From Chitinophagaceae bacterium (GTDB taxonomy: Bacteria; Bacteroidota; Bacteroidia; Chitinophagales; Chitinophagaceae): a stretch of DNA of 38,755 bases. Below the pieces are notes generated by a model. It had not been told where the DNA came from. It ran no database searches and was given only the letters and a program-made list of their open reading frames with translations. Position 1 is the first letter of the stretch; each line of letters starts with the position of its first letter. A program made the translations under genes and the position numbers. Shown here piece after piece: positions 3,185-26,970 of this stretch. The stretch spans positions 1 to 38,755 of the forward strand of contig JAFMJI010000015.1 in assembly GCA_017853575.1 (NCBI GenBank), in the 5' to 3' direction.

Positions 3185-3256
3185 GGTATAAGTTCCTTCT
3201 CAAAGTTGCTTGAAATCTGTTTCAGACAGAAATCAATACACTTAAACTTTTCTTAA

Positions 3257-5950: not shown

Positions 5951-5954
5951 TTAT

Positions 5955-5961
5955 CCTCCTT
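5955..5961 (-). promoter_or_regulatory. Strong Shine-Dalgarno (AAGGAGG) before infB
   Basis: On the minus strand the bases read AAGGAGG, then ATAA, then the infB ATG at 5950. The spacer is only 4 nt. No other gene start in the window has such a match. This supports the ATG at 5950 as the true start. Confidence 0.75.
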
Positions 5962-5996
5962 CAGCTTTTTTTATCTAACGATTGTTGGTCCAATGT

Positions 5997-8922: not shown

Positions 8923-10446
8923 TTATTGCTTCGACAAAATACCAAGTGCCTCAACATCTTTGTATTGCTTTGCCAAATCCATTAACTGTTTTTTTAATTG
9001 AAGAATCTGGTTTTTCTGTGAGGCATCATCAATTAAATTTTTCATTTCATGGGGATCATTTTGAAGATCAAACAATTCCCATTTATTCACTGCACCATAG
9101 AACCTGATTAATTTATACCGATCGGTTCGAATGCCAAGGTGTGGTGCCACTCGGTGAGGTTCTGGATACTCATAATAATGATAATACATTGCTTTCCTCC
9201 AATCCTTCTGAAGAACCGAACTGTTCTCCAGCAATCCTTTAAAACTCTTTCCCTGCATGTCTTTCGGAACAGCGATTCCAGCATAATCGATCAAAGTAGG
9301 AGCAAAATCAATATTGACTACCATCTCATCAACGTGAATTCCTGGCTGAATCTTTCCTGGATACTTCATCATAAAAGGTGTACGCAAGCTTTCTTCATAC
9401 ATAAATCGCTTATCAAACCAACCATGTTCTCCCATGTAAAATCCCTGATCAGAAGTATAAATAACAATGGTGTTTTTAGAGAGTCCGGTTGAATCTAGGT
9501 AATCAAGGATTCTTCCAATATTTCTATCCATTGATCGAGCGGTAGCAAGATAATCGCGCATATAACGTTGGTATTTCCACTTCACAACTTCAATGCTGTC
9601 ATCCTTGATTTTATCATAAGATATTTGAGCACGGTCATAATATGCCTTGTAAGCGGCTTTTTGCTGATCATTCATCCTTCCAAACATTCCACGTTTGGAA
9701 TAGTCAACCCCCATTTTCAAATCATCATGCAACAACATGGTTTTTGAAATGGTCATGTCTTGTTCAGTTGCAGCCTGTCGTTTATCGTAGGTATCAAAGA
9801 AATTTTCAGGCAATGGGAATTCCTGGTTTTCAAATTCAGCCAAATCGTTTGGATCAGGCATCCAGTTGCGGTGTGTAGCCTTCTCACCCACTACCAGAAA
9901 AAATGGTTTATCTGCATTGCGATTTTTCAACCATTGAAGCGAATAGTCACTGATCAAATCGGTAACATATCCTTTCACCCTGACCGTATCTTTATTCATA
10001 TTGATGAAATCGGGCTGGAAGTAATTGCCCTGATCAGGAAGAATATTCCAGTAATCAAATCCGTTGGGCAAACTTTGAAGATGCCATTTGCCAATCCATG
10101 CTGTTTGGTAATTTTTTTGGGACAGAATTTTTTGAATCTGCTGTTGAAGCGGATCGAAGAAACGGTGAGGACCATTGTCTTTCAATCCATTGATATGGCT
10201 GTATTTACCTGTGAGCAGTACAGCTCTACTGGGAGCACAAATAGAATTGGTTACAAAAACATTTTTAAACAACGCACCATCTTTTGCAATTCTGTCGATA
10301 TTAGGAGTTTGCATCAACTTGCTTCCATAGGCACTGATGGTTTGTTGGGTATGATCATCAGAAAATATAACAACAATGTTTGGTTGTTGTGCACTTAGGC
10401 GAGCAATGAATAAAAATGAAGCGATGAAAACGAATAAATTTCTCAT
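8923..10446 (-). CDS. Secreted formylglycine-dependent sulfatase
   Basis: The 507-residue product has a signal peptide (MRNLFVFIASFLFIARLSAQ) and then a sulfatase fold. Metal ligands are visible in IVVIFSDDHTQ (Asp30, Asp31). The C-x-P-S-R core (SICAPSRAVLLTG, Cys70) is the Cys type converted to formylglycine. GKWHLQSLPNGFDYW and YTSDQGFYMGEHGWFDKRF are further family landmarks. The pattern resembles N-acetylglucosamine-6-sulfatase or other host/algal glycan sulfatases, but the substrate cannot be assigned. No maturase gene is in the window. The start is fixed by the signal peptide. A hairpin sits only 5 nt upstream of the ATG, and DUF1080 lies upstream in the same direction. Confidence 0.92.
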   Translation of the reverse strand: MRNLFVFIASFLFIARLSAQQPNIVVIFSDDHTQQTISAYGSKLMQTPNIDRIAKDGALFKNVFVTNSICAPSRAVLLTGKYSHINGLKDNGPHRFFDPLQQQIQKILSQKNYQTAWIGKWHLQSLPNGFDYWNILPDQGNYFQPDFINMNKDTVRVKGYVTDLISDYSLQWLKNRNADKPFFLVVGEKATHRNWMPDPNDLAEFENQEFPLPENFFDTYDKRQAATEQDMTISKTMLLHDDLKMGVDYSKRGMFGRMNDQQKAAYKAYYDRAQISYDKIKDDSIEVVKWKYQRYMRDYLATARSMDRNIGRILDYLDSTGLSKNTIVIYTSDQGFYMGEHGWFDKRFMYEESLRTPFMMKYPGKIQPGIHVDEMVVNIDFAPTLIDYAGIAVPKDMQGKSFKGLLENSSVLQKDWRKAMYYHYYEYPEPHRVAPHLGIRTDRYKLIRFYGAVNKWELFDLQNDPHEMKNLIDDASQKNQILQLKKQLMDLAKQYKDVEALGILSKQ

Positions 10447-10486: not shown

Positions 10487-11431
10487 TTATTTAGCTGGAG
10501 TAATGATAATGTTTCTGTATTCAACTGGTCCGTGATCTCCTTGAAGGAAGATTGGGCCAGGTTCACCTTCATTGCTATCCAAAGCTCCGCCGGTGATTCC
10601 AGGAATCAGCTGTTTACAAATAACTTCTTTTCCATTAGCAACTACTGTTACTGTTCTTCCGACAAGCGTAATATCATAAATCTGCCATTCACCTGCTGGA
10701 TGTGCAGCCATTTGATTGGGTGTAAGAAATCCATACACTCCACTGAACAAAGTTGATGAAGGTTCTTGACCATAGCTATCTTCCACTTGTACCTCATATC
10801 TTCCTCTTAAATAAACTCCGCTGTTGCTTCCTTTTGGATAACGAAATTCGATATGCAATTTGAAGTCAGTGAACTTCTGATCAGTCATGATATTAGATCC
10901 AGAGCGAGGACTTTTCATGATACCGTCTTGAACAAACCATTGATTGTCTGCTTTTTGGGTATGCCATCCTTTGAGATCTTTTCCATTGAACAACTTGATG
11001 GGAGCTCCCCAAACGGGTGCTTTTTCTCTATGAAGCAAAGGAGCTCTAACTCCGGTAAAAGTATACGTTTTCCCATTGCTTGCATTGATGGTACCAGAAA
11101 GTTTATCATCTTTCAATGTTCCTTCAAATACCATGTCTTTGTCTGATCGATCCCATTGTGGTGGGATGGAGAAACTGACTTTCCCATCATTGAAATTTAC
11201 TTTTGCAATGGGGCGGGCACTTCCGCCATCTGCAACGAAATAACCGACGAGTGTTTTTATTCCTGATAATTTTACTTCCAACCATGAAGGGGCAATTTTA
11301 TCTCCCATATCAACAGTAAGATCCCATCTCCCAATAGCAGCAGCTGTAGGTGCTGGGTCATGTGACTGAGAGAAGGATGCAGAAGAAATTAAACAAAGAA
11401 GTGAGCTTAAAAGTAGAAATGACTTTTTCAT
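10487..11431 (-). CDS. Secreted DUF1080 (3-keto-disaccharide hydrolase family) protein
   Basis: The 314-residue product starts with a signal peptide (MKKSFLLLSSLLCLISSASFSQ). A small beta-rich domain follows (about 30-130, GRWDLTVDMG...). The DUF1080 concanavalin-like domain occupies about 143-314, with LFNGKDLKGWH, GSNSGVYLRGRYEVQVEDSYG and GPIFLQGDHGPVEYRNI. Members of this family act on or bind carbohydrates, and some hydrolyse 3-keto-glycosides. Catalytic activity here is inferred only from the family. Its neighbours (a sulfatase and a giant secreted protein) fit extracellular glycan processing. Confidence 0.88.
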   Translation of the reverse strand: MKKSFLLLSSLLCLISSASFSQSHDPAPTAAAIGRWDLTVDMGDKIAPSWLEVKLSGIKTLVGYFVADGGSARPIAKVNFNDGKVSFSIPPQWDRSDKDMVFEGTLKDDKLSGTINASNGKTYTFTGVRAPLLHREKAPVWGAPIKLFNGKDLKGWHTQKADNQWFVQDGIMKSPRSGSNIMTDQKFTDFKLHIEFRYPKGSNSGVYLRGRYEVQVEDSYGQEPSSTLFSGVYGFLTPNQMAAHPAGEWQIYDITLVGRTVTVVANGKEVICKQLIPGITGGALDSNEGEPGPIFLQGDHGPVEYRNIIITPAK

Positions 11432-11475
11432 ATTGCAATAATTGAACCTACAATTTAAGAAATAAATGAAATAAA

Positions 11476-11501
11476 AAAGGCGGAGTATTTACTCCGCCTT
11501 T
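11476..11501 (-). terminator. Intrinsic terminator of the giant gene
   Basis: AAAGGCGGAGT (11476-11486) pairs perfectly with 11491-11501, an 11-bp stem with a 4-nt loop. On the minus strand it runs into TTTTTTAT. It begins 5 nt after the stop of the 14-kb gene and lies upstream of the DUF1080 start at 11431. Confidence 0.85.
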
Positions 11502-11505
11502 GAAA

Positions 11506-14500
11506 TTATTGCTTGGCAATTTTACCAGTGTAAAGAACTTTGCCGTCTTTCTTCATAACTTTCATCATATAGGTACCTTTCGAAAGATTGGTCAGATTAA
11601 TTATGTTACCGGTTCTGACAGTTTTTCTTTCAAGCACCAACTTACCGTTCATATCAAACAATTGAATACTCATTTCATACATACCTTGAAGATTGTATTC
11701 AACCTTCATTCCATTGATAACTGGGTTCGGGAAGAGTTTGATGAACTGGCCATTTTCCAAGTTCAAAACCGCAGTAGACGCATAATAGTAGTTCGCGGAG
11801 CTTAAACTGGTACATCCATTGATGGTAGTTTTTACAGTAAAGTACCCATTACTTGCTGGACGGAACTTCTGTGAAGTTGCGCCAGGAATTGCTTCACCAA
11901 GACTATTATACCACTGGTTTCCATCGGCGCTGCTTGATACAAGATCTGAAACATCTCTTGTGATTGATGGAGCAGCAGGCAATGGCTTACTGGTAATGGT
12001 AGCATTTGCAGATTTAGCGATACAACCAAATGAATTGGTCAATTGCAACTGATAATTTCCAGTACTTGTTGCACTGTAGTTCACTTCAGTTGCACCATTG
12101 ATTTTCGCTCCATCTTTGAGCCATTGATAAGAAACTCCACCGATTACTTGTCCCATGATCACAACTGATTGACCCTGACAAAGTGCAGTTGCAGTTTGGG
12201 TTAAGACAGGAGATACAGGGTTGGAAGTGGTAGTTATATTTCTGGTTGCTGAATTGGCAATACAACCATTCGCTGATGTTGCTCTTACGCTTATAGTACC
12301 ATTGCCACTAAAATTATAAGAATTGCTATTACCTTGATCTGGTATGCCATTTTTAAACCATTGATAGCTATTCTGACCATCTGGTACTCTTATTTGTATT
12401 GTAGTTCCTTCACAGATGGTTGTATCTGTTTTTTGGTTTAAAGTAACATCTGCTGCTTGAATCACACTCAATACTACTTCTCCTGAAGTTGCGCTACAGT
12501 TCTGACTGTTGGTAACTTTTACTTTGTATTTACCAGCTTCTTTCGCACTATAACTACTTCCAGTTGACCCTGTTATTACTTGATCATTTTTCAACCACTG
12601 ATAAGTATAGCCAGTTGCAGCTGTTGCATTTAGCACTCGTTCAGTATTTGAACAAATGGTTAAGTCGCCAGTATAAGATATCGATGTTACTGGTACACTA
12701 TATTCAACAAATACGCTATCGGTCTTATTTCCACAAACACTGGTTGCATCAGTACTATAGATCGCATAATATTTACCAGGAGCAGTAATACTTACTTTAT
12801 TTGTGTTTGAGGTGGTACTTAATAAGGCATCATCTTTGAAAAGATTTACAGTAACCCCTGTTTTAGCTAGGGTAAGATTTACAACATCCCCTTCGCATAT
12901 TTTATATGATCCAGGTTTGGCATCTGTGAACTTAGTAGATGTGAAATCACATCCAGCATAGATCTTGATTGCTTTTTCATAAGATGCATATCCGTTGAAT
13001 ACTGAAACCCTTACGCGAAGGGTATCTGCAAGTTTCAATGCAACCTTATTATACAATATATTACCATTCTTAATTCCAAACATGCTGTTGTTATTTGCAC
13101 CTGTACCATCAACAAGGGTATAAGTCAATTTATCTGAAGATACCTTGTCGTCGATACCTGTTAGTTGTACATTCAACTTATCGACATCTTTCGCTGTAGT
13201 ATAATTGACAAATGAAGTACTTGCGCCGTCTAACAACAAATTAGTAGGTGCGGCAACTACAATAAAATTGAAATATTTATCATAAGCCAACCCTCTGATA
13301 TCCGTTACTCTCATTCTGATTTTATATGTAGAGTCCTTCGTATAAGCAGATTTGAAATAAAGGTTATTTAATGCAGGGTCGATTGCGAAAATATTTGGAT
13401 TTGAAAAATCATCATCATCATACAATGAGAAGAAATATTTCTTAGCATTCACGCTATCAATAGAATAAGCTGATATTTTATACTTGATTGCGCTGTATAA
13501 TTGACTCTGTGATAAGTAAACCGTATCGCTGGTTGAGCTATTCAGCAAGATATCTGATGGTGCATTACCAGCTACGATTTGATCATTTTGAATGATGATC
13601 GTTGATTCTTGAGAGAATGCGGATCCGGCAAAAGATGCGTCTACAGCTTGAACAGACCAATAATAAGTACCACTAGGAAGTTGAATATCCCACTGTTTAT
13701 TATTTTCTGTATTTCCATCTGTTGGAGTTTTTCTATCGCCATCTTTATTGCTTTCAGCATCAATCACATCAGATTTTCCAGGTTTTCTTCCAATTCGAAC
13801 TGCGTAGGTTAATCCATCAATCGGAGTCAAATCATCTTTGGCAGAACTCCAAGAAAGTTTAACTAGGTTTTTATCGCCAACTCTACTAAGAATGGTTGCC
13901 TTTAAGGTGTCAGGAGAGCTAGGGGGCTTGTTTTCAACAAAAGTCTGATTATCCTTCTGTTGTGCAAGTTCTTGAGTCAATGTTGGTATTGCACCAGGGA
14001 ATGCTTTTGATTCCAATTCGATTTTGGGTACTGATTTTATTTTTCCACTGTTAAGCGAAAGTTGATCAGCAGATACATTGGAACTTGTTGCATTAGGTGT
14101 GAAAGGAATAACTGCAGCACCTTGTACAATTCCATTTTGACCTTGTATTCTAGAACTAAGACCTCTTACGTTTTGAAGAATCTTAAAGGAGCTCGAAACA
14201 GAATTGTTGTATTTTTCTGTTCCCACCAATACGAGTCCTAGTTGACCATCGCCTACCACATCGCCCATCGTTGGGGTCAGTTGCAAATATTCGCCAAATG
14301 GGAAACTTGGAAGCTCAGTATAGTTTACATAACCTTGAGAATCTTGTAATGATGTAGCCATTTTGGTTACATAACCTACTCCAGTTCTGCTTCCGCTGAA
14401 GATTACATCAGGATATCCATCCATGTTAAAGTCACCCCAGGTTGTTTTACCATCCTGTATTGGATAAAGTTCAGATTGAATATCCGTAAATGTATACTTC

Positions 14501-17500
14501 TTTATTTCGAGATCATAATTATTCTGGAATATCTTAAATACCTGCCCAGTTGTGGATCCATAACCTGTCATGGCAATATCTGGATAACCATCTTTGTTGA
14601 AATCTACAACATCCAGTGTGCTATTCTTCAATTTTGGAAGTAGTACATCCGTGTTCTTAATGAATTCACATTTACCAAAAATATCAAGGCTACCATTGTA
14701 CACTTCAATCTTTCTTTGTCCACTGTAATTATCATACAACATTACCATATCAACCCTCTTATCACGATTGAAATCAGTAAACGCCAAATTGATATTTTGA
14801 GCTTCCTCATCATTAAGGATTTTCTTGATATTGGTTTCATAGGTTGAAATTGTAAAGCCATACTGACTACCCGGTGTTGGTGTTCCAGTTTGAGCAACAG
14901 AGTCCAACTTTGTTGGTGTTCCAGTTTGAGCAACAGAGTCCAACTTTGTTGTAAAGAACAACACCTGGCCAACTCCCCTGCTATCTGTACCAGAGTAAAT
15001 CATATCAGGAGTTCCATTGTTATCTAAATCAGCAAAATCAAGTGCTGGGCCTCTTAAATAATCTTGTATAGAGAAAAGACTCGTAACCTCCTGGAAATTA
15101 AATCCTTTCTTATTGATAAATGCCTTGAAAACTGGTCGGTTATCATTGTACTCGCCAGCAACAAAAATATCTACATACCCATCATTGTTAATGTCTTTAC
15201 ACTGAATGTTTATGTTTTTGATATTATCAATGCCATTCAAACCTGAAGTTCCATTCGAGGTATTTTCAACTTTTACGAAAGTTGAAATCGAATTTCGATA
15301 AATCCCCGCTGGTGATTGACCCCAAACACCACTATTGCCCAAGTAGATAAAGTCAGAGAATCCATCATTGTCAAAATCCGCCCAAGCAAATTGACTATTG
15401 TCAATTGGAGTAATTCTGCGATCAACAATACCTCCTTGGTTAATATATTTCCATGGATATTTCAAGATAAATGCCTGTTCGGTAGAGAATTTAGAATTCT
15501 TAAAGTTTCCATCAATTGCCATTACGGACCAATAATATTTACCTGGAAGCAATTCAAGATAATATTCATTGGTACCAACTACAGGTATGGTTGGAGATTG
15601 TAACCTTCCAGCCGAATCTACCTGAACAGTTGATAGATCTCCAGAGCCAGGTTTGGTTCCTATTTTAATCAAATAAGATAAACTTTTGCTTGGGGTATGG
15701 TCGTCTTTTGGAGCATCCCATTTAAGTTTTACTTTACCCTGACCCAAATCAGAAATCGTCAATCCTGTTGGAATTTTTGGTGCAACATTTTTATTAGAGC
15801 CCTGATCATTTACATAGATAACAGTTTCTGTTCCAATTGCTTTAGCGCCCGTAATAACCATATCCATGTTACCGTCGTTATTATAATCTCCCCAACTAAT
15901 TGCAGTATTTCTGAATTGAGGCAGATCTAATGTTTTCAACATAGAGTAGTTGCCAAATCCACCCTGATTGATATAGATTCTGGTTGTTGGATTCTTTTTA
16001 TTATCAAGTCCCGAAATTGATATATCCAACAATCCATCATTGTTGACATCCGCAAACTTCACATCGCCATTGTTCAAACTATCAATAACTACTTCTTGGT
16101 AATTATTATAGATGTTCTGATTATTATAGTTGCCTTGTAATTTGGAATCTGCACTGGTGTTTTTAATCAACTTGGTGATAGGTTTCTCTAATGTATTTTC
16201 AATGTATGTTCCCATCACGATGATATCGAGGTCGCCATCGCTGTCAACATCCCCCAAATCAAATCGGGCATTTTTAAGGTTCAATCCATAATTGAAATAG
16301 AATTGATTGTTCCTTAAACTTTGATCATCCAATAATGAATTCAGCCTGATACCTCCTTGAGGATTTCCATTTCTGTCAATACCTGTAAAGATTAAATCAA
16401 GGTCACCATCCAAATCATAATCGATGAACCTCATATCGGAACTGTATAAATCGGGAACTACATATTTTGTATTGAAATCATTGACGATTTTAAAGTTACC
16501 GCGACCATCATTGTTCAACATATACGTATGGGGTTCACCAACTGCATCTTTACCTGAAATGACCATATCCACAGTTCCATTGTTATCATGATCCCCCATT
16601 GCAATAGTTGAATTTTTCAGTGCAGGAATATTTGTTGGATAAGAAACTTCAAATATTCCCTCGTTATTTTTGAACAATACAGTGTATGGCACAGATCCAG
16701 ACTGACCAGTTGCGATCAAATCCAACCATCCATCTTTATCAATATCCACCCACTTTACATCACCTTCTTTTAATTGTCTATTTTTCAATTCAAGATCTAC
16801 AAGATTTCCTTCATCATTTTTATAGATCTTTAGTACTTGGCCTGTATTTTCATCACCGAGACCAATTACTGCGAGGTCTAACTGTCCGTCGTTGTTGTAA
16901 TCACCCCAAGCAAATCTTGCATTAGTAAGTCCAGGTAAAGTACTGGTCTGCTTTGAAAGTGGGTCCTTCGGTTTAAACGTAATTTGTTTGAAATCACTGC
17001 CTGCTCCCCCTTGTGCTACACCCTGAACTGCAATCACATAAGGATATTTACTGGAGATGTTTGGATCTCTGAAAACAATCGAATCTGAGTAAGCACTTGA
17101 AAATACTTGGTCCAATACAATAGGTATCTGCGGAGCAGATTTTTTATAGTTAAAGCTTGTGTTAAGTATATTATTAATATAAGTAGCAGTAGTATCCACT
17201 TTGAAATTATAAGTCAACCTATTTCCGCTATTGTCTGTAAATCCAGACCATTTTATTTTAACATTATACCCATCGTTTACTGCTTCAACTTTTGCATTTG
17301 CTGCACTAACGGAATTTGGAACAACGAGTTCACCAGGTGTCTGGATAACAGTTTTTACAACTTGTTCTCCGTATGCAGATCCATTATATATCTGCTCCAT
17401 CCAAACAAGGTCTTTAAAACCATCGCCGTTCATATCGATTAGCTTTACTTGATTGATAGACCAAATATTATTATTGCTATAATCGAATGGAATATTATAG

Positions 17501-20500
17501 CGCTTAACCTTAAACCCATTCTTCTGATCATTCAAATAAACATTAATCAGTCCATTCGTTGTAACGGTAACAACATCTAAATAACCATCATTGTTAACAT
17601 CATCAGAAGTGATTTTATTGTCGTCTGAACTAATTGCAAGTACTTTATTGCTTTCTATGAATGAATAATTAGATCCGAGTTCATAAATGCTGTAGTTCTG
17701 TTGATTGATGGACCTACATAAGATATCAGCTCTTCCATCATTATTGTAGTCATTTACAAACATAGAGCTACCCCAATCAATGAAGAGTCCTGTTCTATAC
17801 ATTTCATATTGACCCAATATTTTATTCGAAACGAACACATGAACTGATACGCCTTGTGTATTTGGATAGCCCACTTGCCAGTTATCGCCTGTTACACCAA
17901 CGATATCTTTCAAACCATCTTTGTTAATATCAATGAACTTCACAATTCGAATGCCGTTATTAATACACTGATAACAATTGCCATTGGGTGAGTTAAACTT
18001 AGGGACCCATTTCAATTGACTAATAGAAATAATGTGCTCTTGGGTGCCATCAAAATTTCCATCAATCATATCAAGCGCATCCTTGATGTTAGCCTGGTTT
18101 CTTGACCAGTTATTATAATCAAAATATTTGTCATTGAAACTAAATGTTGGTGTAACTGCAGTATCCACTGACCCTCCACTCTGATTAAATTTCAACGTCA
18201 AACTATCAGGATTTAACGAAAAAGCATTGCCATCAAAGATTAGATTTCCTGCCGAAGATCTAAATCCGGGTTTTTGTATGATGGATGCAAAGTCAAACTC
18301 ATCGTCAAAATTTAAGTTAATAGGACCAAGCACTTGCATCATATCTCCTGCCTGACCTAACGATGTTTGAATGCGTTTATTGAAAGTCAACTTTACTGAT
18401 TGATTGGCTTTGTCCGACTTGGCTGTTCTTAATAAATACACAGAATCATTTGGACTTCTGTTACTAGCATTGGCAGATTTCCAGGTATTGTCAAATAACA
18501 ATACGGAAGGATACTTATAATCAGATCCGTTTAGATTTACAAATGAGAGCGTATTTCCTGCTGCTTTAAATTTAACAGATGCAGTGTCGGACTCAAAAAG
18601 CACATCAGGTACATAGGTTGTATCTATTGTACTTAATATATTACTAATTCCACTTTTTACATCATTCACTACTGCTCTGATACCATAATTCACTATTGAG
18701 CTGGTTGAAAGAGTGTCCACCACACGAATACTATCTGCATTGATGTCTTTCAACGCAATAGATAATGTATCCAACTTCGCAGCACTTGAATCTCTATAAA
18801 GAATAAGCTTAGAAACTTCCAGTGTTTTATCATATTTGAAGTTGATTGTTACTTTATCACCTGACTTCTGCAAACGTGTGATACTTGGTGCAGGGAATGA
18901 GAATGGATTCTCATAAGCACCAAGATCAGGTTTAGTAAGATCTGGGCCAGGACGAGCATTTTTCACTAAATCATTTTCTGGAGAAAGAAGTGTTTGTCCT
19001 GCAACTGTAATGCTTGAAACACCTTTCCCAAGTGCAGGTGAACTATTGCTCAATCTGTAGTCGCCAGTTTCCTCACTTACAAACAAAGGATCAATTCTAA
19101 GGTTGCTATTTTTCTTCGCAAAATTTTGGTATTCAACTATACTATTTCGAATTGAATAATAGTTTGCAGAAATTTGGGAACTTGGATCATTCGCCCAGAA
19201 AATACAATTGACAAAAGGTATCAACGCTTTTTCGTAAGTACCATTGTTGCCCCAATTCTGTGTCTTTGTAAATGTACAATTGATAAATCTTGGCATTTTG
19301 TATTGTGCCGATGTACTATCAAGCCAACCTACATTGAGGAAGTTCCCTTTATTATTGTAAAATAGATTATTGATAAATGTCGGTGAAGATTGGTTGATTG
19401 AAAGTGTTTGGAAATTTTCTACATCACGAATAATATTGTTTTTGAAAACTGGAGAAGTATTATTTACAACAGAAATTGCAGCAGCCCAATCACCACTTCT
19501 CCAATTTTTCATGCCATTCATGGTAAAGCCTTCTACTTGAATGGATTTATAAGGCCTGCTATCATTGTCATTGCCATCCACTCTAACTAGATAATAATCA
19601 GCTTGGCTGGTTGAACTGATCGATGTTTTTGCAGGACCATCTGAAGACTTTACTACAACAGCTTTATTGGCAATTCGGAATGGTGCATACGCTCCAGGCT
19701 TCACCAAAATAGTATCTTCATCCGAAGCAGCATTGATCGCATCTTGAATGGTATTGAATGGTTTCTTTGCTGTTCCGAGCGAGAGATTATTTAAAGTTGT
19801 GTCTACAAAAAGAATATTATTTGTTGTGAGTTTCAAAACATCACTTAATTCACTGGCTGCACCTCCAGCATCTGTAACTTTTATTGCATAATAATAATCC
19901 TTGTTTTTTTCAAGATTTTTATCAACGTAGAAACTTGTATCAATACCTCTTGCTACCACAACAAGTGAATCTGATTTGATTCCGCGATAAAGTGTAAAAC
20001 GACTTGATACATTTGATTTAGTCCAAGTCAATAAGTTTACTCTTGGTCCACCTTCTCCTGCAAATGAACTAACCTTTGCTGGAGGGATATTTGGAATTAC
20101 ATTGAGCTCGTTACTAAATCCACTATACTTTGGTGTAGCGGATGAGTCGTATGCCTTCACTCGATAGTAATACTTTGTACCATTGGAAACAGCATTGTCA
20201 TTAACAAACAAGGAGTCTGGCTTATCTACTGTAGCATATTCAGTCAGTGTTGCATTATCTGAGATTGAAGTAATTGAACGGTATATTTTATACCCTTTGA
20301 TGACCTTACTTGATTTTAACCATGAAACCTTAACCTTGGTGTTTCCTCCTTCCACTTCGTTGAGTGATGGAGCAGGAAATGCATAGCTGGTTTGATGCGC
20401 ACCGATATCTACTTTATCATCAATGCTTGCACCAAAATAATCTTTTCCATTGGCAAGATATATGTCAATACCAGATGTCTTGAACAATTTTGCACCACTA

Positions 20501-23500
20501 GCAATTGCAGTACTGGTTGAGCCTAATTTATATGTTACAGTATCTGCAAAAACAACATTCCCATTCAAAACATTATTGAAGGAATTAGCCTTGTAAGCAT
20601 ATGAATTGATATTGGCATATTTATCCAATGACTGATTGATCAGGTTGTTTGAAATATTTGAGTAACTAAAGACACTGTTATTGCCAGATTGAAACTTATA
20701 AAAATTAAAATCTGCTCGATTGTTATAGAATAAATTATTAACAACAATGGCATTCTTATTATTCGGCATGAACTGAATAGCTACTGCATCATTTGCAATA
20801 AAACTATTATTAGCAATAATGGTGGTATCGCCCCAGCCTTCTAATCTAATAACATCTGTCCTCAGATCATCCCATGGCTGCACATAATAAGTTCCATTTT
20901 TTATAAAATAGTTATTCTCAATGGTCAGTTTTCCTACCCAACCTCCCATCAATGGAGTAGCTTGGTTTATTGAGCCATGGTAGTTATTGATGAATTTATT
21001 TTGACGGAACACATTTTCTCTGTCGTTTAATTGAATAAATCCATAGTTGCCAATGAATGTTGAATTTGTAATGGTAGAATACCCACTGAAACCAATGAAA
21101 TACCTAGATCGGTTGTTTTCCTGACCATTGCCATCGAATACACAATTCTTTACGTTGACATAGTCTGTATTGAAAATCTGGGATGCATTTTTATAGAAAG
21201 TCAATCCGATGAAATTAGCAACTGGTCTTGGCCATAAATCAGTTCTTTGGAAAAGACTTCCTATGTCTGTATTGCTGGTAATTTTTGTTGCTTCAATATC
21301 AGCGGCATCACCGGATAATATCCATGCTGAAGCAAATGTTATATTCTTTGAATATCTAATTGTTTCAGTCATGGTCAGTGTTCCCTTCCCTATAATAATT
21401 GTATCGCCAGCATTTGAAAATGCATTCGCCTCCGTTAAAGTTGTAAATGGATATGACTTTGATCCGTTTTGAATTACCTTACTCGTAGTATCGACATATA
21501 TCAAATTATTTGGTACAACTGATATAACATTACTGATTGGACTCTTCACGTTGAGTGAATCAGTTACTTTAACTCCATAAAAATATTTTTTATTGACAGA
21601 TACATCCGCATCAACATAATAAGATGAATCAATAGGACCAGCAATCAACACCATTGAGTCTTCAGTTGGACCTCTGAAAATGCTGTAAGTATAAACATCA
21701 GCTTTTTTCTTCCACTCAATTGTTGCCTTGCGAGGACCAGCCGCAACTGTGATATTTTCTAATTTATTTGGTACAGTATTTGGACGGAGTAAAACTTCAT
21801 TACTCAATCCACTTCTATTGCTAGCGTTGTCGTATGCCTGTATCCTGTAGTAATACTTTCCTTGATTTACCAAGTTAGATTCTGTCAATGAGAGAGAATC
21901 ACCTCGATTGATTGTTGTGTATGGAGTTGATGCATTATCTGGAATTGGGGCATCACTTCTATATATATAATAACCTGCAATATTAGGATTGCTTTTGTTC
22001 CAATTGATGGTAAGCGACTTATTAGCAGCTTCACCTTTCAACCCAGGAGCAGGAAACTGTTGAGCTGTTTGCTCTGCACCTATATCTGTTTTAGTTGTTG
22101 AGCGAGTTGTTCCATAATAATCGGTAGAAGTTGCTTTAAATATTACAACGGTTCCACTTGATTTACTAATGGTATTTACACCAGCTGCAATGGCTGCACT
22201 TGAGTTACCAAGTCTATAGTTAATGGTGTCTTTAAAGCCATATTCAACATTGTAGATGTTATCTTTTGAATCAGATCTGTATGCATAGCTGCTGATGTTT
22301 TCATTTGATGCCAGATCTTTTGTTAAAATATTATTTGAAATGTTAGAATAAACAAACGCTTGATTATTACCTGAATTATACTTTTCAAAAGAAAAATCTG
22401 CCTTGTTCTTGTAAAACAAATTGTTTACAACGACAGCAGATTTATTTACTTGTGTAAATCCTACTGCAACAGCATCGTTTTGGATAAATGTATTATTGGT
22501 AATGTATGCAGTATCGCCCCAGCCATGTACACCAATGATTGAAGTTTCGACTCCATCCCATGATTGTTTTACATACTCGCCATTACGCAAGAAAATATTA
22601 TTATCTACTACCAATCTTCCAGTCCAACCCCAAAAGAAACGGGAAATTTGATTATTGGCTTTACTTCCAAAAATATTTTCTTGGAAGAGGTTTACTTTGA
22701 AAGTATTTGTTGATCCGCCAAGTTCTATGTATCCATAGTTCTTAATGAATTTAGAGTTCTTTACTTCGGAATTTCCTGAAAACGAAATAAATCTACCGGT
22801 TTTATTTGTTGCACTTCCATTTTGGATGAAATAACAACGATCCACAATAATATTATCAAAATTGAACACTCCATCTTTGTTGTTTTGGAAAGTCAATCCA
22901 ATGAGTGTCTTGTTAACAGAAGTACCGGAAAATACATTTCCGATGCCGGCAGCAGAGGAAATAATGGTTTCTTTGATATCAACTGTATCTTTTGATGCTA
23001 TGTAATTTGATCCTACAACTATATTTTTATTGAATCGTTGAGTCTCTGCAAAAGAATAACTTCCACGTTTTAAGATCACTGTATCTCCACCCAAAGAGGC
23101 TGTGATCGCATCATTGATCGTTGAGAATGGATCATCACTGCTACCAAATGCAGTTTCCTTACCAGTTTTTGCGACATATAAGTACGAAGTAATGACCACT
23201 CCATATGCCTTTGTAAATTCACTTTCAACACCATCAGCATCAATAGACTTCAACTTATAGTAATACGTTTTGCCAATGATCCTGTTGGAGTCGATGTAGC
23301 TGCTATCTCTGTCAGAGATATTTGATAAAAATTTCAAAGATGTAGAATCCAATCCACCAAACAGTTTATACGTACCCGTTCCTTTTTTATCGGTAGTAGG
23401 ATTGGTCCATTTCACCTTTACCATTCTGCCTGCATTGGAAAGCACAATATTAGTTGGAAGTGGATAACCTGCATTGGGTTTTGCACCTTTGGTATTACCA

Positions 23501-25491
23501 AAACCAGAAAGTTGATCTCCAGAAGTAATTTTTGATTTTAACTTATAATAATAGCGAATTCCATTTGCTGCCGTAGTATCGGTGAAATCAACAGATGAAT
23601 TATCTCCGTTTTTATCAATCTCAACAAGGTAATATCGTCCCCAAGAATCAACCCCATCGTTCATTCCATCTTTCCATGCCTCAGCATAATCTTCGGTATC
23701 ACCAGCATTGTTTGGTTCTCCGTAATTGATGCCAAAATTGATCGTATATCCAGCAGAAATATCCATTCCATTCACCCAAACCCAATTGCCTTTGGGTTCA
23801 TTCAACTTGTCTTTTTGATAAAGTCCAATCCACATGGATTCCTGCGTTGTTTTTCTAGCTTCGTTCATCACAAAATCAAACTCAGCTTTGCTTTCGAACA
23901 CAATAAGATCAGCTCCATCAGCTTTTGCACTGGATCTTGAATTCGTCCATGATTTGCGTGCTTTACTCAAATAATATCTAGAATTTCCATAAGTACCTAA
24001 GTCAATGTAATTGACTTCATTGTTGATTTGTCCAGATACTGTTGTTACAACGGTCTCTGGCTTAACTTTTGCACCAATTTTGTCATAATTGGTTCCAAGA
24101 GAATCGGTAGATCTATACACCAAAATCGAATCATAAGTACTCTGATTTACTTTCCAATTCAAATATACTTTTCCATTACCAGCAGTTGCCTTGGTTAAGA
24201 TGGGAACAGCAACTGCATTGCTGTTTTCAAAAGGACCCAAATCAATTTTAGAACCAACAGGAGATGGTCTTGAAACACCATCAAAGTCTTTTTGTGCGAC
24301 TACAAAGACAGTATCGAGTTTAAGTGTGTCAATACCCAGTGAAAATCCATAGCTCGAATCAGCTAAATGATAATCGCCATTGGCAGAATCTTTAAAGATG
24401 ATTTTATTGCTAGCATCGTAGTTGTTTCTAGCATAATAGTTTGAAGAGCTTGACAAATTATTTTGTTTTGCTCTTGACATATCAAGTGGAATATAGTTGT
24501 TGAAAAATCCATAAGTATATGAATTTTCACCACCTCTGTAATTAAAATATTCAGTTCCAGAAAAAGATGCGGAACCATCATTCTTATCAATGATATTGTT
24601 GATGAAATAAAAAATTCCTCCATCTCTTCTCTCCCAAGTCTTAAACATACCAACAGTTGCCTTGTTATTATAAACCAGACAGTTTGAAATAAAAGCACTG
24701 TCATTATTTACTGCACTCGTGCCTGTATTCCCACCTTCACCACCAAAGGTGAAAATATTACCTCCTGTATTTTTATAAAAAAGAGAGTTTTGCACAAAAA
24801 CATCCTGACTGTAGCCGAAGAAAATCAACCCTCCATCAGAATTTGTATTCTGCAAATTATTTTTGAATACTGAGTTTTTGATGATGGTTTTTGCATGAGC
24901 ATTCCATCCATTATAAGATTGAGCAACGATGAGATTACCTGATTTGTTATTTTCAAACGTACAACTGTCAATGATTGTATTGTTAACCCACATGAAATTA
25001 TATCCATAACCTGTTCCGTTGTCTTTAAAAATACATGCCTTGACAATACCTCCATACATGTATAATCCAAATCGCTTTGCACTGGTTAATGTAATACCAA
25101 CAACCTGAACATCTTTTGGATTTGAAGTACTGGTATAGTTGGCAATGATAGCATCATCCCACTCGTTTGTTTGAGATATATCAGATGCATCAATGATGGT
25201 TTTAGCAATATGTGATTTATCGCCATCGATTAAATACTGAGAACCAATTACCAATTTTTTGAAAGTTCCGGTATGACGAAAATTTATCTTCTCAGGATAT
25301 GTACCCTCATAGATAATGACCGTATCACCATCCGTTAAATAAGAGCTTGAAAGCCCTGCTGCAATAGTAGTGAAGGTGCTGTCTGAAGCAGTTGGATTTA
25401 CAATATTTGCTTTTCTAACATACACTCTCCTAGCATAAGAACTTTGCGAAAACACAAGGAAAAGCAGAACAATCGAAAAAATCTTTTTCAT
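11506..25491 (-). CDS. Giant T9SS-secreted modular protein (beta-helix / FN3 / C-type lectin / VCBS / Ig-like)
   Basis: This uninterrupted 4661-residue protein has a signal peptide (MKKIFSIVLLFLVFSQSSYA) and a type IX secretion sorting domain at about 4577-4661 (LFPNPVING ... GTYMMKVMKKDGK). Approximate order: beta-helix 1 (25-420); FN3 split by a C-type lectin-like domain (lectin 500-632); FN3 (674-768); beta-helix 2 (770-1140); two FN3; beta-helix 3 (1327-1700); two FN3; beta-helix 4 (1890-2190); FN3-like; VCBS block 1 (2470-2717, five calcium loops); FN3; VCBS block 2 (2850-3230, seven loops); FN3; VCBS block 3 (3360-3770, seven loops); FN3 (3850-3965); cadherin-like (3975-4150); four to five Ig/PKD-like repeats (4177-4547). 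It is probably exported and surface-attached or released, perhaps as a glycan-binding adhesin or depolymerase. The beta-helices could be enzymatic, but no catalytic residues can be assigned. Confidence 0.93.
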   Translation of the reverse strand: MKKIFSIVLLFLVFSQSSYARRVYVRKANIVNPTASDSTFTTIAAGLSSSYLTDGDTVIIYEGTYPEKINFRHTGTFKKLVIGSQYLIDGDKSHIAKTIIDASDISQTNEWDDAIIANYTSTSNPKDVQVVGITLTSAKRFGLYMYGGIVKACIFKDNGTGYGYNFMWVNNTIIDSCTFENNKSGNLIVAQSYNGWNAHAKTIIKNSVFKNNLQNTNSDGGLIFFGYSQDVFVQNSLFYKNTGGNIFTFGGEGGNTGTSAVNNDSAFISNCLVYNNKATVGMFKTWERRDGGIFYFINNIIDKNDGSASFSGTEYFNYRGGENSYTYGFFNNYIPLDMSRAKQNNLSSSSNYYARNNYDASNKIIFKDSANGDYHLADSSYGFSLGIDTLKLDTVFVVAQKDFDGVSRPSPVGSKIDLGPFENSNAVAVPILTKATAGNGKVYLNWKVNQSTYDSILVYRSTDSLGTNYDKIGAKVKPETVVTTVSGQINNEVNYIDLGTYGNSRYYLSKARKSWTNSRSSAKADGADLIVFESKAEFDFVMNEARKTTQESMWIGLYQKDKLNEPKGNWVWVNGMDISAGYTINFGINYGEPNNAGDTEDYAEAWKDGMNDGVDSWGRYYLVEIDKNGDNSSVDFTDTTAANGIRYYYKLKSKITSGDQLSGFGNTKGAKPNAGYPLPTNIVLSNAGRMVKVKWTNPTTDKKGTGTYKLFGGLDSTSLKFLSNISDRDSSYIDSNRIIGKTYYYKLKSIDADGVESEFTKAYGVVITSYLYVAKTGKETAFGSSDDPFSTINDAITASLGGDTVILKRGSYSFAETQRFNKNIVVGSNYIASKDTVDIKETIISSAAGIGNVFSGTSVNKTLIGLTFQNNKDGVFNFDNIIVDRCYFIQNGSATNKTGRFISFSGNSEVKNSKFIKNYGYIELGGSTNTFKVNLFQENIFGSKANNQISRFFWGWTGRLVVDNNIFLRNGEYVKQSWDGVETSIIGVHGWGDTAYITNNTFIQNDAVAVGFTQVNKSAVVVNNLFYKNKADFSFEKYNSGNNQAFVYSNISNNILTKDLASNENISSYAYRSDSKDNIYNVEYGFKDTINYRLGNSSAAIAAGVNTISKSSGTVVIFKATSTDYYGTTRSTTKTDIGAEQTAQQFPAPGLKGEAANKSLTINWNKSNPNIAGYYIYRSDAPIPDNASTPYTTINRGDSLSLTESNLVNQGKYYYRIQAYDNASNRSGLSNEVLLRPNTVPNKLENITVAAGPRKATIEWKKKADVYTYSIFRGPTEDSMVLIAGPIDSSYYVDADVSVNKKYFYGVKVTDSLNVKSPISNVISVVPNNLIYVDTTSKVIQNGSKSYPFTTLTEANAFSNAGDTIIIGKGTLTMTETIRYSKNITFASAWILSGDAADIEATKITSNTDIGSLFQRTDLWPRPVANFIGLTFYKNASQIFNTDYVNVKNCVFDGNGQENNRSRYFIGFSGYSTITNSTFIGNYGFIQLNDRENVFRQNKFINNYHGSINQATPLMGGWVGKLTIENNYFIKNGTYYVQPWDDLRTDVIRLEGWGDTTIIANNSFIANDAVAIQFMPNNKNAIVVNNLFYNNRADFNFYKFQSGNNSVFSYSNISNNLINQSLDKYANINSYAYKANSFNNVLNGNVVFADTVTYKLGSTSTAIASGAKLFKTSGIDIYLANGKDYFGASIDDKVDIGAHQTSYAFPAPSLNEVEGGNTKVKVSWLKSSKVIKGYKIYRSITSISDNATLTEYATVDKPDSLFVNDNAVSNGTKYYYRVKAYDSSATPKYSGFSNELNVIPNIPPAKVSSFAGEGGPRVNLLTWTKSNVSSRFTLYRGIKSDSLVVVARGIDTSFYVDKNLEKNKDYYYAIKVTDAGGAASELSDVLKLTTNNILFVDTTLNNLSLGTAKKPFNTIQDAINAASDEDTILVKPGAYAPFRIANKAVVVKSSDGPAKTSISSTSQADYYLVRVDGNDNDSRPYKSIQVEGFTMNGMKNWRSGDWAAAISVVNNTSPVFKNNIIRDVENFQTLSINQSSPTFINNLFYNNKGNFLNVGWLDSTSAQYKMPRFINCTFTKTQNWGNNGTYEKALIPFVNCIFWANDPSSQISANYYSIRNSIVEYQNFAKKNSNLRIDPLFVSEETGDYRLSNSSPALGKGVSSITVAGQTLLSPENDLVKNARPGPDLTKPDLGAYENPFSFPAPSITRLQKSGDKVTINFKYDKTLEVSKLILYRDSSAAKLDTLSIALKDINADSIRVVDTLSTSSIVNYGIRAVVNDVKSGISNILSTIDTTYVPDVLFESDTASVKFKAAGNTLSFVNLNGSDYKYPSVLLFDNTWKSANASNRSPNDSVYLLRTAKSDKANQSVKLTFNKRIQTSLGQAGDMMQVLGPINLNFDDEFDFASIIQKPGFRSSAGNLIFDGNAFSLNPDSLTLKFNQSGGSVDTAVTPTFSFNDKYFDYNNWSRNQANIKDALDMIDGNFDGTQEHIISISQLKWVPKFNSPNGNCYQCINNGIRIVKFIDINKDGLKDIVGVTGDNWQVGYPNTQGVSVHVFVSNKILGQYEMYRTGLFIDWGSSMFVNDYNNDGRADILCRSINQQNYSIYELGSNYSFIESNKVLAISSDDNKITSDDVNNDGYLDVVTVTTNGLINVYLNDQKNGFKVKRYNIPFDYSNNNIWSINQVKLIDMNGDGFKDLVWMEQIYNGSAYGEQVVKTVIQTPGELVVPNSVSAANAKVEAVNDGYNVKIKWSGFTDNSGNRLTYNFKVDTTATYINNILNTSFNYKKSAPQIPIVLDQVFSSAYSDSIVFRDPNISSKYPYVIAVQGVAQGGAGSDFKQITFKPKDPLSKQTSTLPGLTNARFAWGDYNNDGQLDLAVIGLGDENTGQVLKIYKNDEGNLVDLELKNRQLKEGDVKWVDIDKDGWLDLIATGQSGSVPYTVLFKNNEGIFEVSYPTNIPALKNSTIAMGDHDNNGTVDMVISGKDAVGEPHTYMLNNDGRGNFKIVNDFNTKYVVPDLYSSDMRFIDYDLDGDLDLIFTGIDRNGNPQGGIRLNSLLDDQSLRNNQFYFNYGLNLKNARFDLGDVDSDGDLDIIVMGTYIENTLEKPITKLIKNTSADSKLQGNYNNQNIYNNYQEVVIDSLNNGDVKFADVNNDGLLDISISGLDNKKNPTTRIYINQGGFGNYSMLKTLDLPQFRNTAISWGDYNNDGNMDMVITGAKAIGTETVIYVNDQGSNKNVAPKIPTGLTISDLGQGKVKLKWDAPKDDHTPSKSLSYLIKIGTKPGSGDLSTVQVDSAGRLQSPTIPVVGTNEYYLELLPGKYYWSVMAIDGNFKNSKFSTEQAFILKYPWKYINQGGIVDRRITPIDNSQFAWADFDNDGFSDFIYLGNSGVWGQSPAGIYRNSISTFVKVENTSNGTSGLNGIDNIKNINIQCKDINNDGYVDIFVAGEYNDNRPVFKAFINKKGFNFQEVTSLFSIQDYLRGPALDFADLDNNGTPDMIYSGTDSRGVGQVLFFTTKLDSVAQTGTPTKLDSVAQTGTPTPGSQYGFTISTYETNIKKILNDEEAQNINLAFTDFNRDKRVDMVMLYDNYSGQRKIEVYNGSLDIFGKCEFIKNTDVLLPKLKNSTLDVVDFNKDGYPDIAMTGYGSTTGQVFKIFQNNYDLEIKKYTFTDIQSELYPIQDGKTTWGDFNMDGYPDVIFSGSRTGVGYVTKMATSLQDSQGYVNYTELPSFPFGEYLQLTPTMGDVVGDGQLGLVLVGTEKYNNSVSSSFKILQNVRGLSSRIQGQNGIVQGAAVIPFTPNATSSNVSADQLSLNSGKIKSVPKIELESKAFPGAIPTLTQELAQQKDNQTFVENKPPSSPDTLKATILSRVGDKNLVKLSWSSAKDDLTPIDGLTYAVRIGRKPGKSDVIDAESNKDGDRKTPTDGNTENNKQWDIQLPSGTYYWSVQAVDASFAGSAFSQESTIIIQNDQIVAGNAPSDILLNSSTSDTVYLSQSQLYSAIKYKISAYSIDSVNAKKYFFSLYDDDDFSNPNIFAIDPALNNLYFKSAYTKDSTYKIRMRVTDIRGLAYDKYFNFIVVAAPTNLLLDGASTSFVNYTTAKDVDKLNVQLTGIDDKVSSDKLTYTLVDGTGANNNSMFGIKNGNILYNKVALKLADTLRVRVSVFNGYASYEKAIKIYAGCDFTSTKFTDAKPGSYKICEGDVVNLTLAKTGVTVNLFKDDALLSTTSNTNKVSITAPGKYYAIYSTDATSVCGNKTDSVFVEYSVPVTSISYTGDLTICSNTERVLNATAATGYTYQWLKNDQVITGSTGSSYSAKEAGKYKVKVTNSQNCSATSGEVVLSVIQAADVTLNQKTDTTICEGTTIQIRVPDGQNSYQWFKNGIPDQGNSNSYNFSGNGTISVRATSANGCIANSATRNITTTSNPVSPVLTQTATALCQGQSVVIMGQVIGGVSYQWLKDGAKINGATEVNYSATSTGNYQLQLTNSFGCIAKSANATITSKPLPAAPSITRDVSDLVSSSADGNQWYNSLGEAIPGATSQKFRPASNGYFTVKTTINGCTSLSSANYYYASTAVLNLENGQFIKLFPNPVINGMKVEYNLQGMYEMSIQLFDMNGKLVLERKTVRTGNIINLTNLSKGTYMMKVMKKDGKVLYTGKIAKQ
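14875..14951. repeat. Perfect 36-bp tandem duplication inside the giant gene
   Basis: Bases 14876-14911 are repeated exactly at 14912-14947. The match extends one base to the left and about four to the right. It encodes two copies of KLDSVAQTGTPT in the loop between calcium repeats 3 and 4 of VCBS block 3. The unit is a multiple of three, so the frame is kept. Confidence 0.95.
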
Positions 25492-25659
25492 AGTAATGAT
25501 AATATGCTAGGAAGGTAGTGTTTTAACTTTTTTTTTCAAAATTTAACTTTTAATAAATTCACTTGGTTCACGTTGATTGTCAATGATTTGAGTATATTGG
25601 AATGGAATGTGAATGACATTGTAAAACCAAATGACAGATTTGTTATAAAAACCGTTTTT

Positions 25660-26136: not shown

Positions 26137-26970
26137 TCATCCAAACTTTACGGATGTCATGGTCAACGAACCTCCCATGGCCTTGTCATTAAAAAATTCA
26201 ATCTTGTCTTTTCTATTCGAAGCACCTAGGGTATATAACAATGGTAGATAATGCTCAGGTGTGGGTATGGCCAATTGTCCCGCAGTTCCTAAACGGTCAT
26301 GATGAACCAAATCATCATATAAACCATTCATTATCAAGTTTTTAAATGTAGTATTCATTTCCAAGGCCCAGTCATACCCATAACCAGGCTCACTCAATTT
26401 TGCCCAATCAACCATCCGCAGGTTGTGCACCATGTTCCCACTTCCAATAATTAAAACACCCCTTTTCCTCAACTGCTTCATTTCCTTCGCCAGCTCAAAA
26501 TGAAATTTGCCTTCATGGGTATAATCAATGCTCAACTGCAAAACTGGAATGTTCGCATCCGGATACATATGCCGAATGATGGTCCAGGTACCATGATCCA
26601 ACCCCCAATCATGACTCAATTCAACATCCGTGGAATGAATCATTTCAGCTACATCCCTTGCCAGTACTGGATCTCCAGGAGCAGGATACTGCACCTGATA
26701 CAGCGCTTCTGGGAAGCCACCAAAATCATGAATTGTCTTAGGGAAATCCATCGCAGTAACTTTTGTACCTCGGGTGAACCAATGAGCTGAGACAACAATA
26801 ACAGCCGTTGGAACCGGAATTGTTTCTCCCATTTCCTTCCACCGGCTGCTAAACTCGTTGTCCTCTATCCCGTTCATCGGTGATCCATGACCAATAAAAA
26901 GAACAGGCATCTCCAACCCATTTTCAGACAGGGATGAGGTGAAATTCCTGAGCTCTTGAAAGGTTTTCAT
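26137..26970 (-). CDS. ygiD: 4,5-DOPA extradiol dioxygenase family protein (YgiD/LigB-like)
   Basis: The 277-residue protein has the family's metal-site histidines: GHGSPMNG (His28), SAHWFTRG (His63), HDWGLDHGTW (about residue 120-129), GNMVHNL (about residue 182) and TPEHYLPLLY (about residue 238). The family opens catechol-type rings with a single bound metal (zinc in E. coli YgiD). In bacteria the native substrate is generally unknown. It stands alone, on the opposite strand to the exported protein upstream, with only 21 nt between the stops. Confidence 0.88.
   Translation of the reverse strand: MKTFQELRNFTSSLSENGLEMPVLFIGHGSPMNGIEDNEFSSRWKEMGETIPVPTAVIVVSAHWFTRGTKVTAMDFPKTIHDFGGFPEALYQVQYPAPGDPVLARDVAEMIHSTDVELSHDWGLDHGTWTIIRHMYPDANIPVLQLSIDYTHEGKFHFELAKEMKQLRKRGVLIIGSGNMVHNLRMVDWAKLSEPGYGYDWALEMNTTFKNLIMNGLYDDLVHHDRLGTAGQLAIPTPEHYLPLLYTLGASNRKDKIEFFNDKAMGGSLTMTSVKFG

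What the first reader, a model, noticed from the sequence alone, without database searches (positions are those of the whole stretch)
11506..25491. A 14-kb T9SS cargo protein combining beta-helices, lectin, VCBS and Ig-like modules
One uninterrupted reading frame encodes a 4661-residue secreted protein with four beta-helix modules, repeated FN3 domains, a C-type lectin-like domain, three VCBS blocks, cadherin-like and Ig-like domains, and a T9SS tail. I do not recall a described protein with this exact combination. It shares a strand with a sulfatase and a DUF1080 gene, suggesting a surface-glycan interaction or degradation system.
Basis: partly seen in the sequence, partly recalled or inferred. 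Interest (0 to 1): 0.7.

Follow-up and report, generated by a model that had tools for sequence, protein, structure and literature searches.

The report
Giant surface protein with nested lectin
A bacterium carries one 14-kb gene, not found in the close relatives searched, for a giant secreted protein of repeated surface domains in which a sugar-binding-type lectin domain is slotted inside another domain; it is probably an adhesin, and the slotting trick recurs in related bacteria.

Summary
The reading frame is real: window 11506-25491, minus strand, 4661 aa. Tools support a T9SS type A tail, a C-type lectin domain (CTLD), FG-GAP ("VCBS") repeats, FN3 and Ig-like domains and beta-helix modules. 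The cadherin-like part is unproven.

The proposed glycan system with the sulfatase and DUF1080 neighbours is not supported. A strong terminator hairpin separates them. The two sister genomes in which the site could be read keep sulfatase-DUF1080 with only about 55-60 bp where the giant gene sits. Its N-terminal half has no colinear relative in 40 same-genus genomes.

The unexpected part: the CTLD interrupts an FN3 domain. Two uninterrupted copies of the same beta-helix-FN3-FN3 module in the same protein show this directly. Nesting recurs in the order: 29 of 53 CTLD clusters (21 of 38 frames examined) split a HYR domain, confirmed with Pfam's HYR model in 3 of 3 such loci tested. It is not universal.

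Best explanation: a T9SS-exported, lectin-tipped giant adhesin. Such adhesins are known (RemA, SprB); this mosaic with a nested lectin is a new variant. Function is inferred, not tested.

The parts
11506..25491 (-). giant gene, 4661 aa (P0001)
25432..25491 (-). residues 1-20, signal-peptide-like N terminus
   Evidence: read by eye from the translation; no signal-peptide program was available
24217..25431 (-). residues 21-425, beta-helix module 1
   Evidence: colinear with module 2, E 6e-15
24070..24213 (-). residues 427-474, N-terminal part of the interrupted FN3
   Evidence: 13.8 bits with an HMM of the protein's other FN3s; 0 of 181 other windows and 0 of 2000 shuffles score as high
23614..24009 (-). 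residues about 495-626, nested C-type lectin domain; Ca2+-site-like residues E592, N594, E600, N611, D612
   Evidence: Pfam Lectin_C 512-609; phmmer to DC-SIGN 504-622, E 9.5e-10; Foldseek on a model, 50 of 50 listed chains are C-type-lectin-like; residues, their role in animal CTLDs recalled
23476..23595 (-). residues 633-672, C-terminal part of the interrupted FN3
   Evidence: 15.3 bits with the own-FN3 HMM; colinear with modules 2 and 3
23182..23469 (-). residues 675-770, FN3
22057..23181 (-). residues 771-1145, beta-helix module 2
   Evidence: AF2 model, Foldseek
21508..22056 (-). residues 1146-1328, two FN3 domains (uninterrupted)
20380..21507 (-). residues 1329-1704, beta-helix module 3
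   Evidence: 43% identical to module 2 with its FN3s, E 1e-138
19819..20379 (-). residues 1705-1891, two FN3 domains (uninterrupted)
18898..19818 (-). residues 1892-2198, beta-helix module 4
   Evidence: similar to module 1, E 1e-12; choice_anch_Q 17.0 bits, under cut-off
18619..18897 (-). residues 2199-2291, FN3
17362..18084 (-). residues about 2470-2710, FG-GAP block 1
15787..16944 (-). residues about 2850-3235, FG-GAP block 2, seven calcium-type motifs
15460..15783 (-). residues 3237-3344, FN3-like
   Evidence: 35% identical to 3859-3968; fn3 E 0.017
14092..15414 (-). residues about 3360-3800, FG-GAP block 3
14875..14951 (-). 36-bp exact tandem duplication inside FG-GAP block 3 (KLDSVAQTGTPT twice)
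13588..13917 (-). residues 3859-3968, FN3-like
   Evidence: no Pfam hit on its own
12967..13569 (-). residues 3975-4175, cadherin-like by eye, unproven
   Evidence: Cadherin_3 E 0.089 in one of two segments
11797..12969 (-). residues 4175-4565, Ig-like array
   Evidence: Ig_7, Ig_2, PKD under cut-off; internal repeats
11512..11736 (-). residues 4586-4660, T9SS type A sorting domain
   Evidence: PF18962, TIGR04183
11476..11501 (-). terminator-like hairpin after the giant gene, before DUF1080
   Evidence: -17.8 kcal/mol, z -6.0, 1 of 200 shuffles as good; 12-bp perfect arms
10487..11431 (-). DUF1080 = PF06439 3-keto-disaccharide hydrolase; kept without the giant gene in relatives
8923..10446 (-). 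sulfatase (PF00884, SGSH_C)

Best explanation
A very large cell-surface or released adhesin exported by the type IX secretion system. Shown by sequence: type A sorting tail at the C terminus, SprA translocon gene in the genome, tandem beta-helix-FN3 modules, FG-GAP blocks, an Ig-like array, and a CTLD inserted within one FN3. Inferred: Sec export, passage through SprA and hand-over to PorV, which for type A tails gives static anchoring or release (PMC12618676, passages seen). With the C terminus at the cell, the Ig array and FG-GAP propellers would form a stalk and the CTLD, near the N terminus, would sit at the far end. The FN3 sandwich would act as a rigid socket that presents the lectin's calcium/sugar loop, so that the cell adheres to a glycan on particles, neighbours or a matrix. 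The gene is a lineage-specific acquisition placed between DUF1080 and a small unknown gene, transcribed as its own unit.
For: Type A tail; SprA 2471 bits; CTLD by Pfam, PDB phmmer and Foldseek; five calcium-site-type residues E592, N594, E600, N611, D612 present (role recalled). Insertion in FN3: module 1 residues 35-461 match 784-1179 of module 2 (E 6e-15) and 633-773 match 1199-1333 (E 5e-10), so 171 residues in module 1 stand where module 2 has 19; the same against module 3 (E 2e-8 and 4e-11). The N and C parts each score with an FN3 HMM built from the other copies, while the CTLD alone does not, and 0 of 2000 shuffles and 0 of 181 other windows score as high. Separate unit and recent acquisition: terminator, short intergenic gap in two sister genomes, no colinear relative in 40 genus genomes.
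Against: No experiment. Pfam's own fn3 model does not detect the interrupted FN3 and the AF2 model of residues 420-676 has mean pLDDT 54.9 with the FN3 parts under 60, so closure of the sandwich is not shown by structure. The W of the usual WND motif is M here, and the CTLD has no cysteine, so disulfides of animal CTLDs are absent. Beta-helices often carry enzymes, so an enzymatic role is open. Other T9SS genes (PorV, PorU) were not searched. Whether the sisters lost the gene instead is not excluded.
Confidence: 0.6

Rival explanations
1. A secreted polysaccharide-degrading enzyme: one or more beta-helix modules are lyases or hydrolases (PL6/pectate-lyase-like), and the CTLD and FN3s are substrate-binding parts, acting with the sulfatase and 3-keto-disaccharide hydrolase.
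For: Foldseek on the module 2 model lists PL6 alginate lyases and pectate lyases first; sulfatases, a 3-keto-disaccharide hydrolase and a SASA esterase are neighbours.
Against: TM-scores at most 0.40 and 3 matches at E <= 0.001; no enzyme family hit in Pfam or NCBIfam over cut-off; catalytic residues were not tested; four diverged repeats of one module suit a stalk or binding role; the neighbours are kept without the giant gene and a terminator separates them.
Confidence: 0.2
2. Cell-cell recognition or antagonism: a lineage-specific surface protein at a variable site next to DUF1080, used for kin recognition, contact with prey or phage receptor variation.
For: Genome-specific gene at a site where some relatives hold other large secreted proteins (1174-1914 aa); CTLDs are also common in viral contigs (52 loci).
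Against: No toxin or effector domain found; no diversity-generating element was searched for; the variable-site idea rests on few loci.
Confidence: 0.13
3. Assembly or binning artefact: the gene is foreign to this genome or falsely joined.
For: Draft genome in 40 contigs, the window being one whole contig; no relative in the genus.
Against: Both flanks are syntenic with sister genomes, codon usage fits its neighbours along its whole length, one open frame.
Confidence: 0.04

Closest known systems
RemA of Flavobacterium johnsoniae (T9SS type A, lectin-containing gliding adhesin)
   Same: lectin domain plus type A tail (PMC12618676, passages seen)
   Different: the window protein is a 4661-aa mosaic with beta-helix modules, FG-GAP blocks and a CTLD nested in FN3; RemA's own domains were not compared here
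SprB (giant T9SS adhesin)
   Same: very large repetitive T9SS surface protein (size recalled)
   Different: SprB has a type B tail; the window protein has type A
Order-level proteins with a CTLD nested in a HYR domain (for example L074, L086, L094)
   Same: CTLD inserted into a beta-sandwich domain
   Different: the host domain is HYR, not FN3; no beta-helix/FG-GAP mosaic was looked for there
1026-aa CTLD proteins of the same genus (L002, L004-L010)
   Same: CTLD at the N terminus; nearest in a tree to the window CTLD (95/90, but long branches meet); flanks look like a split Ig domain by eye
   Different: host looks Ig-like; the split is only weakly supported by HMM
PL6 alginate lyases and other right-handed beta-helices (8bwk, 7chu)
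   Same: predicted fold of module 2
   Different: weak match, no enzyme family hit, catalytic residues untested

Membership tests
T9SS type A cargo | C-terminal type A sorting domain (TIGR04183 / PF18962) | tested here: met
   over curated cut-offs
T9SS type A cargo | T9SS in the same genome | tested here: met
   SprA over cut-off; only SprA was searched, PorV and PorU were not
T9SS type A cargo | Sec signal peptide | not tested
   typical N terminus by eye only
T9SS type A cargo | actual export and anchoring or release | not testable with these tools
   needs proteomics or a tagged strain
C-type lectin-like domain | sequence family and fold | tested here: met
   Lectin_C over cut-off; phmmer and Foldseek
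C-type lectin-like domain | calcium/sugar site residues (EPN, E, ND) | tested here: met
   E592, N594, E600, N611, D612 present; W of WND is M. Meaning of the motif recalled
C-type lectin-like domain | disulfides of animal CTLDs | tested here: not met
   no cysteine between residues 272 and 885
C-type lectin-like domain | sugar binding | not testable with these tools
   needs a glycan array
CTLD nested in a beta-sandwich host | host domain continues on both sides of the CTLD | tested here: met
   two uninterrupted paralogous modules, colinear on both sides; own-FN3 HMM with controls
CTLD nested in a beta-sandwich host | closed FN3 fold in a structure | tested here: inconclusive
   AF2 mean pLDDT 54.9, FN3 parts low; Pfam fn3 gives no hit to the interrupted copy
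Glycan-utilisation locus with sulfatase and DUF1080 | co-transcription | tested here: not met
   terminator-like hairpin between the genes; computed only
Glycan-utilisation locus with sulfatase and DUF1080 | conserved association in relatives | tested here: not met
   2 of 2 genomes with DUF1080 and the next gene on one contig lack it
PL6 / pectate-lyase-like enzyme | beta-helix fold with catalytic residues | tested here: inconclusive
   fold predicted for module 2; catalytic residues not tested

The most novel reading that the evidence does not exclude
In this order of bacteria (T9SS-bearing; Bacteroidota by inference) the C-type lectin domain is habitually a plug-in: it is inserted into a loop of a beta-sandwich carrier (HYR most often, FN3 here, probably Ig-like in the genus) instead of being strung in line. 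The carrier works as a socket that presents the lectin loop from a rigid frame, much as loops are presented by antibody folds, and giant surface proteins gain a lectin by such insertions. The window protein catches one case with its own internal control: the same module with and without the lectin.
Probability: 0.55. Interest if true: 0.55.

Novelty: new variant of a known kind. Interest (0 to 1): 0.42.

Why it matters
Giant T9SS surface proteins are usually annotated as strings of domains. If lectins are often nested inside carrier domains, domain annotation misses the carrier (Pfam did here), and the nested units are natural examples of how to graft a binding domain into a stable sandwich. 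The present protein gives a direct with/without comparison within one chain and a readable short-gap site in sister genomes, so both the insertion of the domain and the gain of the gene can be studied.

Tried and rejected
Operon with DUF1080 and sulfatase: rejected because of the terminator and the two sister genomes. Recent foreign DNA: codon usage is native, and no transposase was recognised by eye among the window's ORFs; the only repeats found near the gene's ends are the terminator arms and a 10-bp direct repeat; so the route of gain is unknown. The two ends were scanned apart, so a target-site duplication across them was not tested by program. Colinear relatives: the N-terminal 2477 aa gave local hits only (8 of 36 same-genus genomes to the CTLD, 1 to other parts, 0 of 23 other genomes of the order); the C-terminal 2184 aa matched 60 of 149 order genomes (own included) locally, mainly in the Ig array and tail; the beta-helix/FN3 profile matched 9 of 248 (own included), every match outside the own genome lying in the FN3 part (profile 341 onward); a GTDB scan by short peptides, sensitive to close kin only, gave one FG-GAP hit; plasmids 2 records at 8-9% coverage, phages none.

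Limits of the nesting claim. The 38 frames are the 30 loci kept (best matches, one per genome, a near-identical pair L066/L067 counted twice) plus 8 genus loci, not a random sample. 24 of 53 clusters are not HYR-nested, 8 of them the genus loci. Six of the 29 N-half matches have E above 1 (3.3, 15, 9.5, 15, 18, 1.4) and count only through position; reversed sequences gave 0 such partial matches against 32 forward, though 10 reversed matches of any kind passed E < 1. The HYR HMM was built from intact HYRs of the same frames; Pfam's own model agreed in 3 of 3 HYR-type loci tested. In the phylum-wide sample (12 of 296 genomes with a CTLD) no frame of 28 showed a HYR or FN3 split on both sides; two loci that look like a split pre-peptidase domain by eye (L163, L177) got no Pfam support, and in L157 the Big_5 domain ends before the CTLD. 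The Ig-like split in the genus is weak: N parts E 1.2 to 19, C parts mostly not found.

Alignments A3, A5, A6 and A7 misplaced the FN3 rows and were not used for folding. The tree that puts the window CTLD with the genus CTLDs warns of long branches and is only a lead. Literature: no paper on nested CTLDs in these bacteria in searches (0 papers each) or in the listings of searches (in 77 'hyr' mostly matched Hyriopsis); searches were on other points. Subscription journals are mostly not in that library.

Full report
The frame and its modules. A single frame of 4661 aa lies on the minus strand at 11506-25491. From the N terminus: a signal-peptide-like start (by eye), beta-helix module 1, an FN3 that carries the lectin, a second FN3, beta-helix modules 2 and 3 each followed by two FN3s, beta-helix module 4 with one FN3, an unassigned stretch (2292-2470), three FG-GAP blocks (2470-3800) separated by FN3-like domains, a stretch that may be cadherin-like, an Ig-like array and a T9SS type A tail. 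FG-GAP, tail and lectin pass curated cut-offs; fn3, Beta_helix and Ig families do not, but are backed by internal repeats and, for one beta-helix, by a partly confident model. The cadherin-like claim is not supported beyond E 0.089.

The lectin is nested. Module 1 aligns with module 2 in two colinear pieces: residues 35-461 with 784-1179 (E 6e-15) and 633-773 with 1199-1333 (E 5e-10). Between the pieces module 1 has 171 residues and module 2 has 19. Against module 3 the pieces are 40-468 with 1349-1746 (E 2e-8) and 638-773 with 1765-1896 (E 4e-11). The extra residues are the C-type lectin domain (Pfam 512-609; about 495-626 in all). An HMM built from six other FN3s of the protein scores the N part at 13.8 bits and the C part at 15.3 bits, the lectin alone at -0.9; none of 2000 shuffled stretches and none of 181 other stretches of the protein reached 13.8 bits (best 10.2 and 6.3). 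Against this: Pfam's fn3 model does not see the interrupted copy, and the AF2 model, which recovers the CTLD, leaves the FN3 parts at low confidence (mean 54.9).

Is this peculiar to one protein? A search for Lectin_C in 248 genomes of the order found it in 46. In 38 frames (30 loci kept from that search, 8 from the genus) there were 57 CTLDs in 53 clusters; 29 clusters in 21 frames had the first part of a HYR domain before and the last part after. No split HYR without a CTLD was seen beside 47 intact-type HYR matches. Pfam's HYR model confirmed this in the three HYR-type loci I gave it, with two flanking stretches in L086. The rest are not HYR-nested: the genus proteins look Ig-nested by eye with weak HMM support, family f8 proteins and others show no host, and none of 28 frames from the phylum-wide sample shows a two-sided HYR or FN3 split. 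So nesting is recurrent in the order, not a law.

The gene's place. In sister genomes G013 and G024 the order rimP, sulfatase, DUF1080, small gene, small gene, sulfatase, SASA is kept, but the giant gene (and the LigB gene at 26137-26970) is missing. In G013 DUF1080 starts at 14091 and the next gene at 14035, leaving 55 bp; G024 is similar by the printed sequence; in the window the same two genes are 14.2 kb apart. No GIANT match appeared in any of the 20 fetched loci at E 1e-8. The N-terminal 2477 aa find no colinear relative in 36 same-genus genomes or in four more plus the two sisters again (the same query finds itself). Several of these genomes are incomplete. The nearest genome by NusA (G185, 84% complete) has a contig that ends inside the sulfatase gene, so its site cannot be read. 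Gain in this lineage is the simpler reading; loss in the sisters is not excluded. Codon usage is native.

No operon with the sulfatase. A hairpin of 12 perfect pairs with a U tract follows the giant gene's stop codon, -17.8 kcal/mol against -4.0 for shuffles, z -6.0, 1 of 200 shuffles as good. DUF1080 (PF06439, 3-keto-disaccharide hydrolase) has relatives at 57% identity or more in 32 of 41 genus genomes, own included. The proposed glycan-degradation system therefore does not include the giant gene on present evidence.

Mechanism. Shown: a type A tail and a SprA gene, 13 type A tails in the genome. From the literature: type A tails are taken by PorV, and tail swaps in F. johnsoniae gave static anchoring or release, while the type B tail of SprB gives movement (PMC12618676, passages; the SprA pore and PorV with a RemA-like substrate in PMC10994853, passages). 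Inferred: the protein is anchored or released as a long rod with the lectin near the far end. The five residues of the calcium site are present, no cysteines are. I therefore favour an adhesin (0.6) over an enzyme (0.2) or a recognition/antagonism protein (0.13).

Comparison with what is known. It works like RemA and SprB, and is a T9SS type A cargo by the features that could be tested. It differs in architecture and in the nested lectin. Searches of the open library gave no paper on CTLDs nested in HYR, FN3 or Ig domains of these bacteria (searches: 0 papers; 28, 58 and 77: listings only). In PMC10769870 (passages) a Bdellovibrio fibre protein uses a C-type lectin fold, described as a terminal domain, and PMC7824862 (one passage) speaks of that fold in phages; neither passage describes nesting. 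I file it as a new variant of a known kind.

Noticed in passing
L045 13583-15038, L046 about 5289-6730 versus window 11431-25657: Sister genomes show a short-gap site: DUF1080 and the next small gene about 55-60 bp apart, where the window has 14.2 kb.
   Followed up: yes
L048, L049, L055, L057: In other genus members large secreted-type proteins (1174-1914 aa) sit beside DUF1080; the two tested have T9SS type B tails (L055 1421 aa, L049 1914 aa). The site may be a hot spot for surface genes.
   Followed up: partly
window 26137-26970: A LigB-type dioxygenase gene is also absent from both sister genomes at this place and has the poorest codon-usage fit of the window genes (0.031).
   Followed up: no
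window 14875-14951: Exact in-frame 36-bp tandem duplication inside FG-GAP block 3, a possible length-variable site.
   Followed up: no
L079 40-395 (aa): Two CTLDs in tandem appear inside a single split HYR domain.
   Followed up: no
L095-L146: 52 environmental viral contigs encode CTLDs with a conserved EPNNAGNEDY stretch; their host proteins were not examined.
   Followed up: no
G488:C263 and G557:C15 (L161, L169, L175-L185): Proteins with many CTLD copies alternating with sandwich-like segments; by eye the CTLDs may split pre-peptidase-like domains, but Pfam gave no support.
   Followed up: partly
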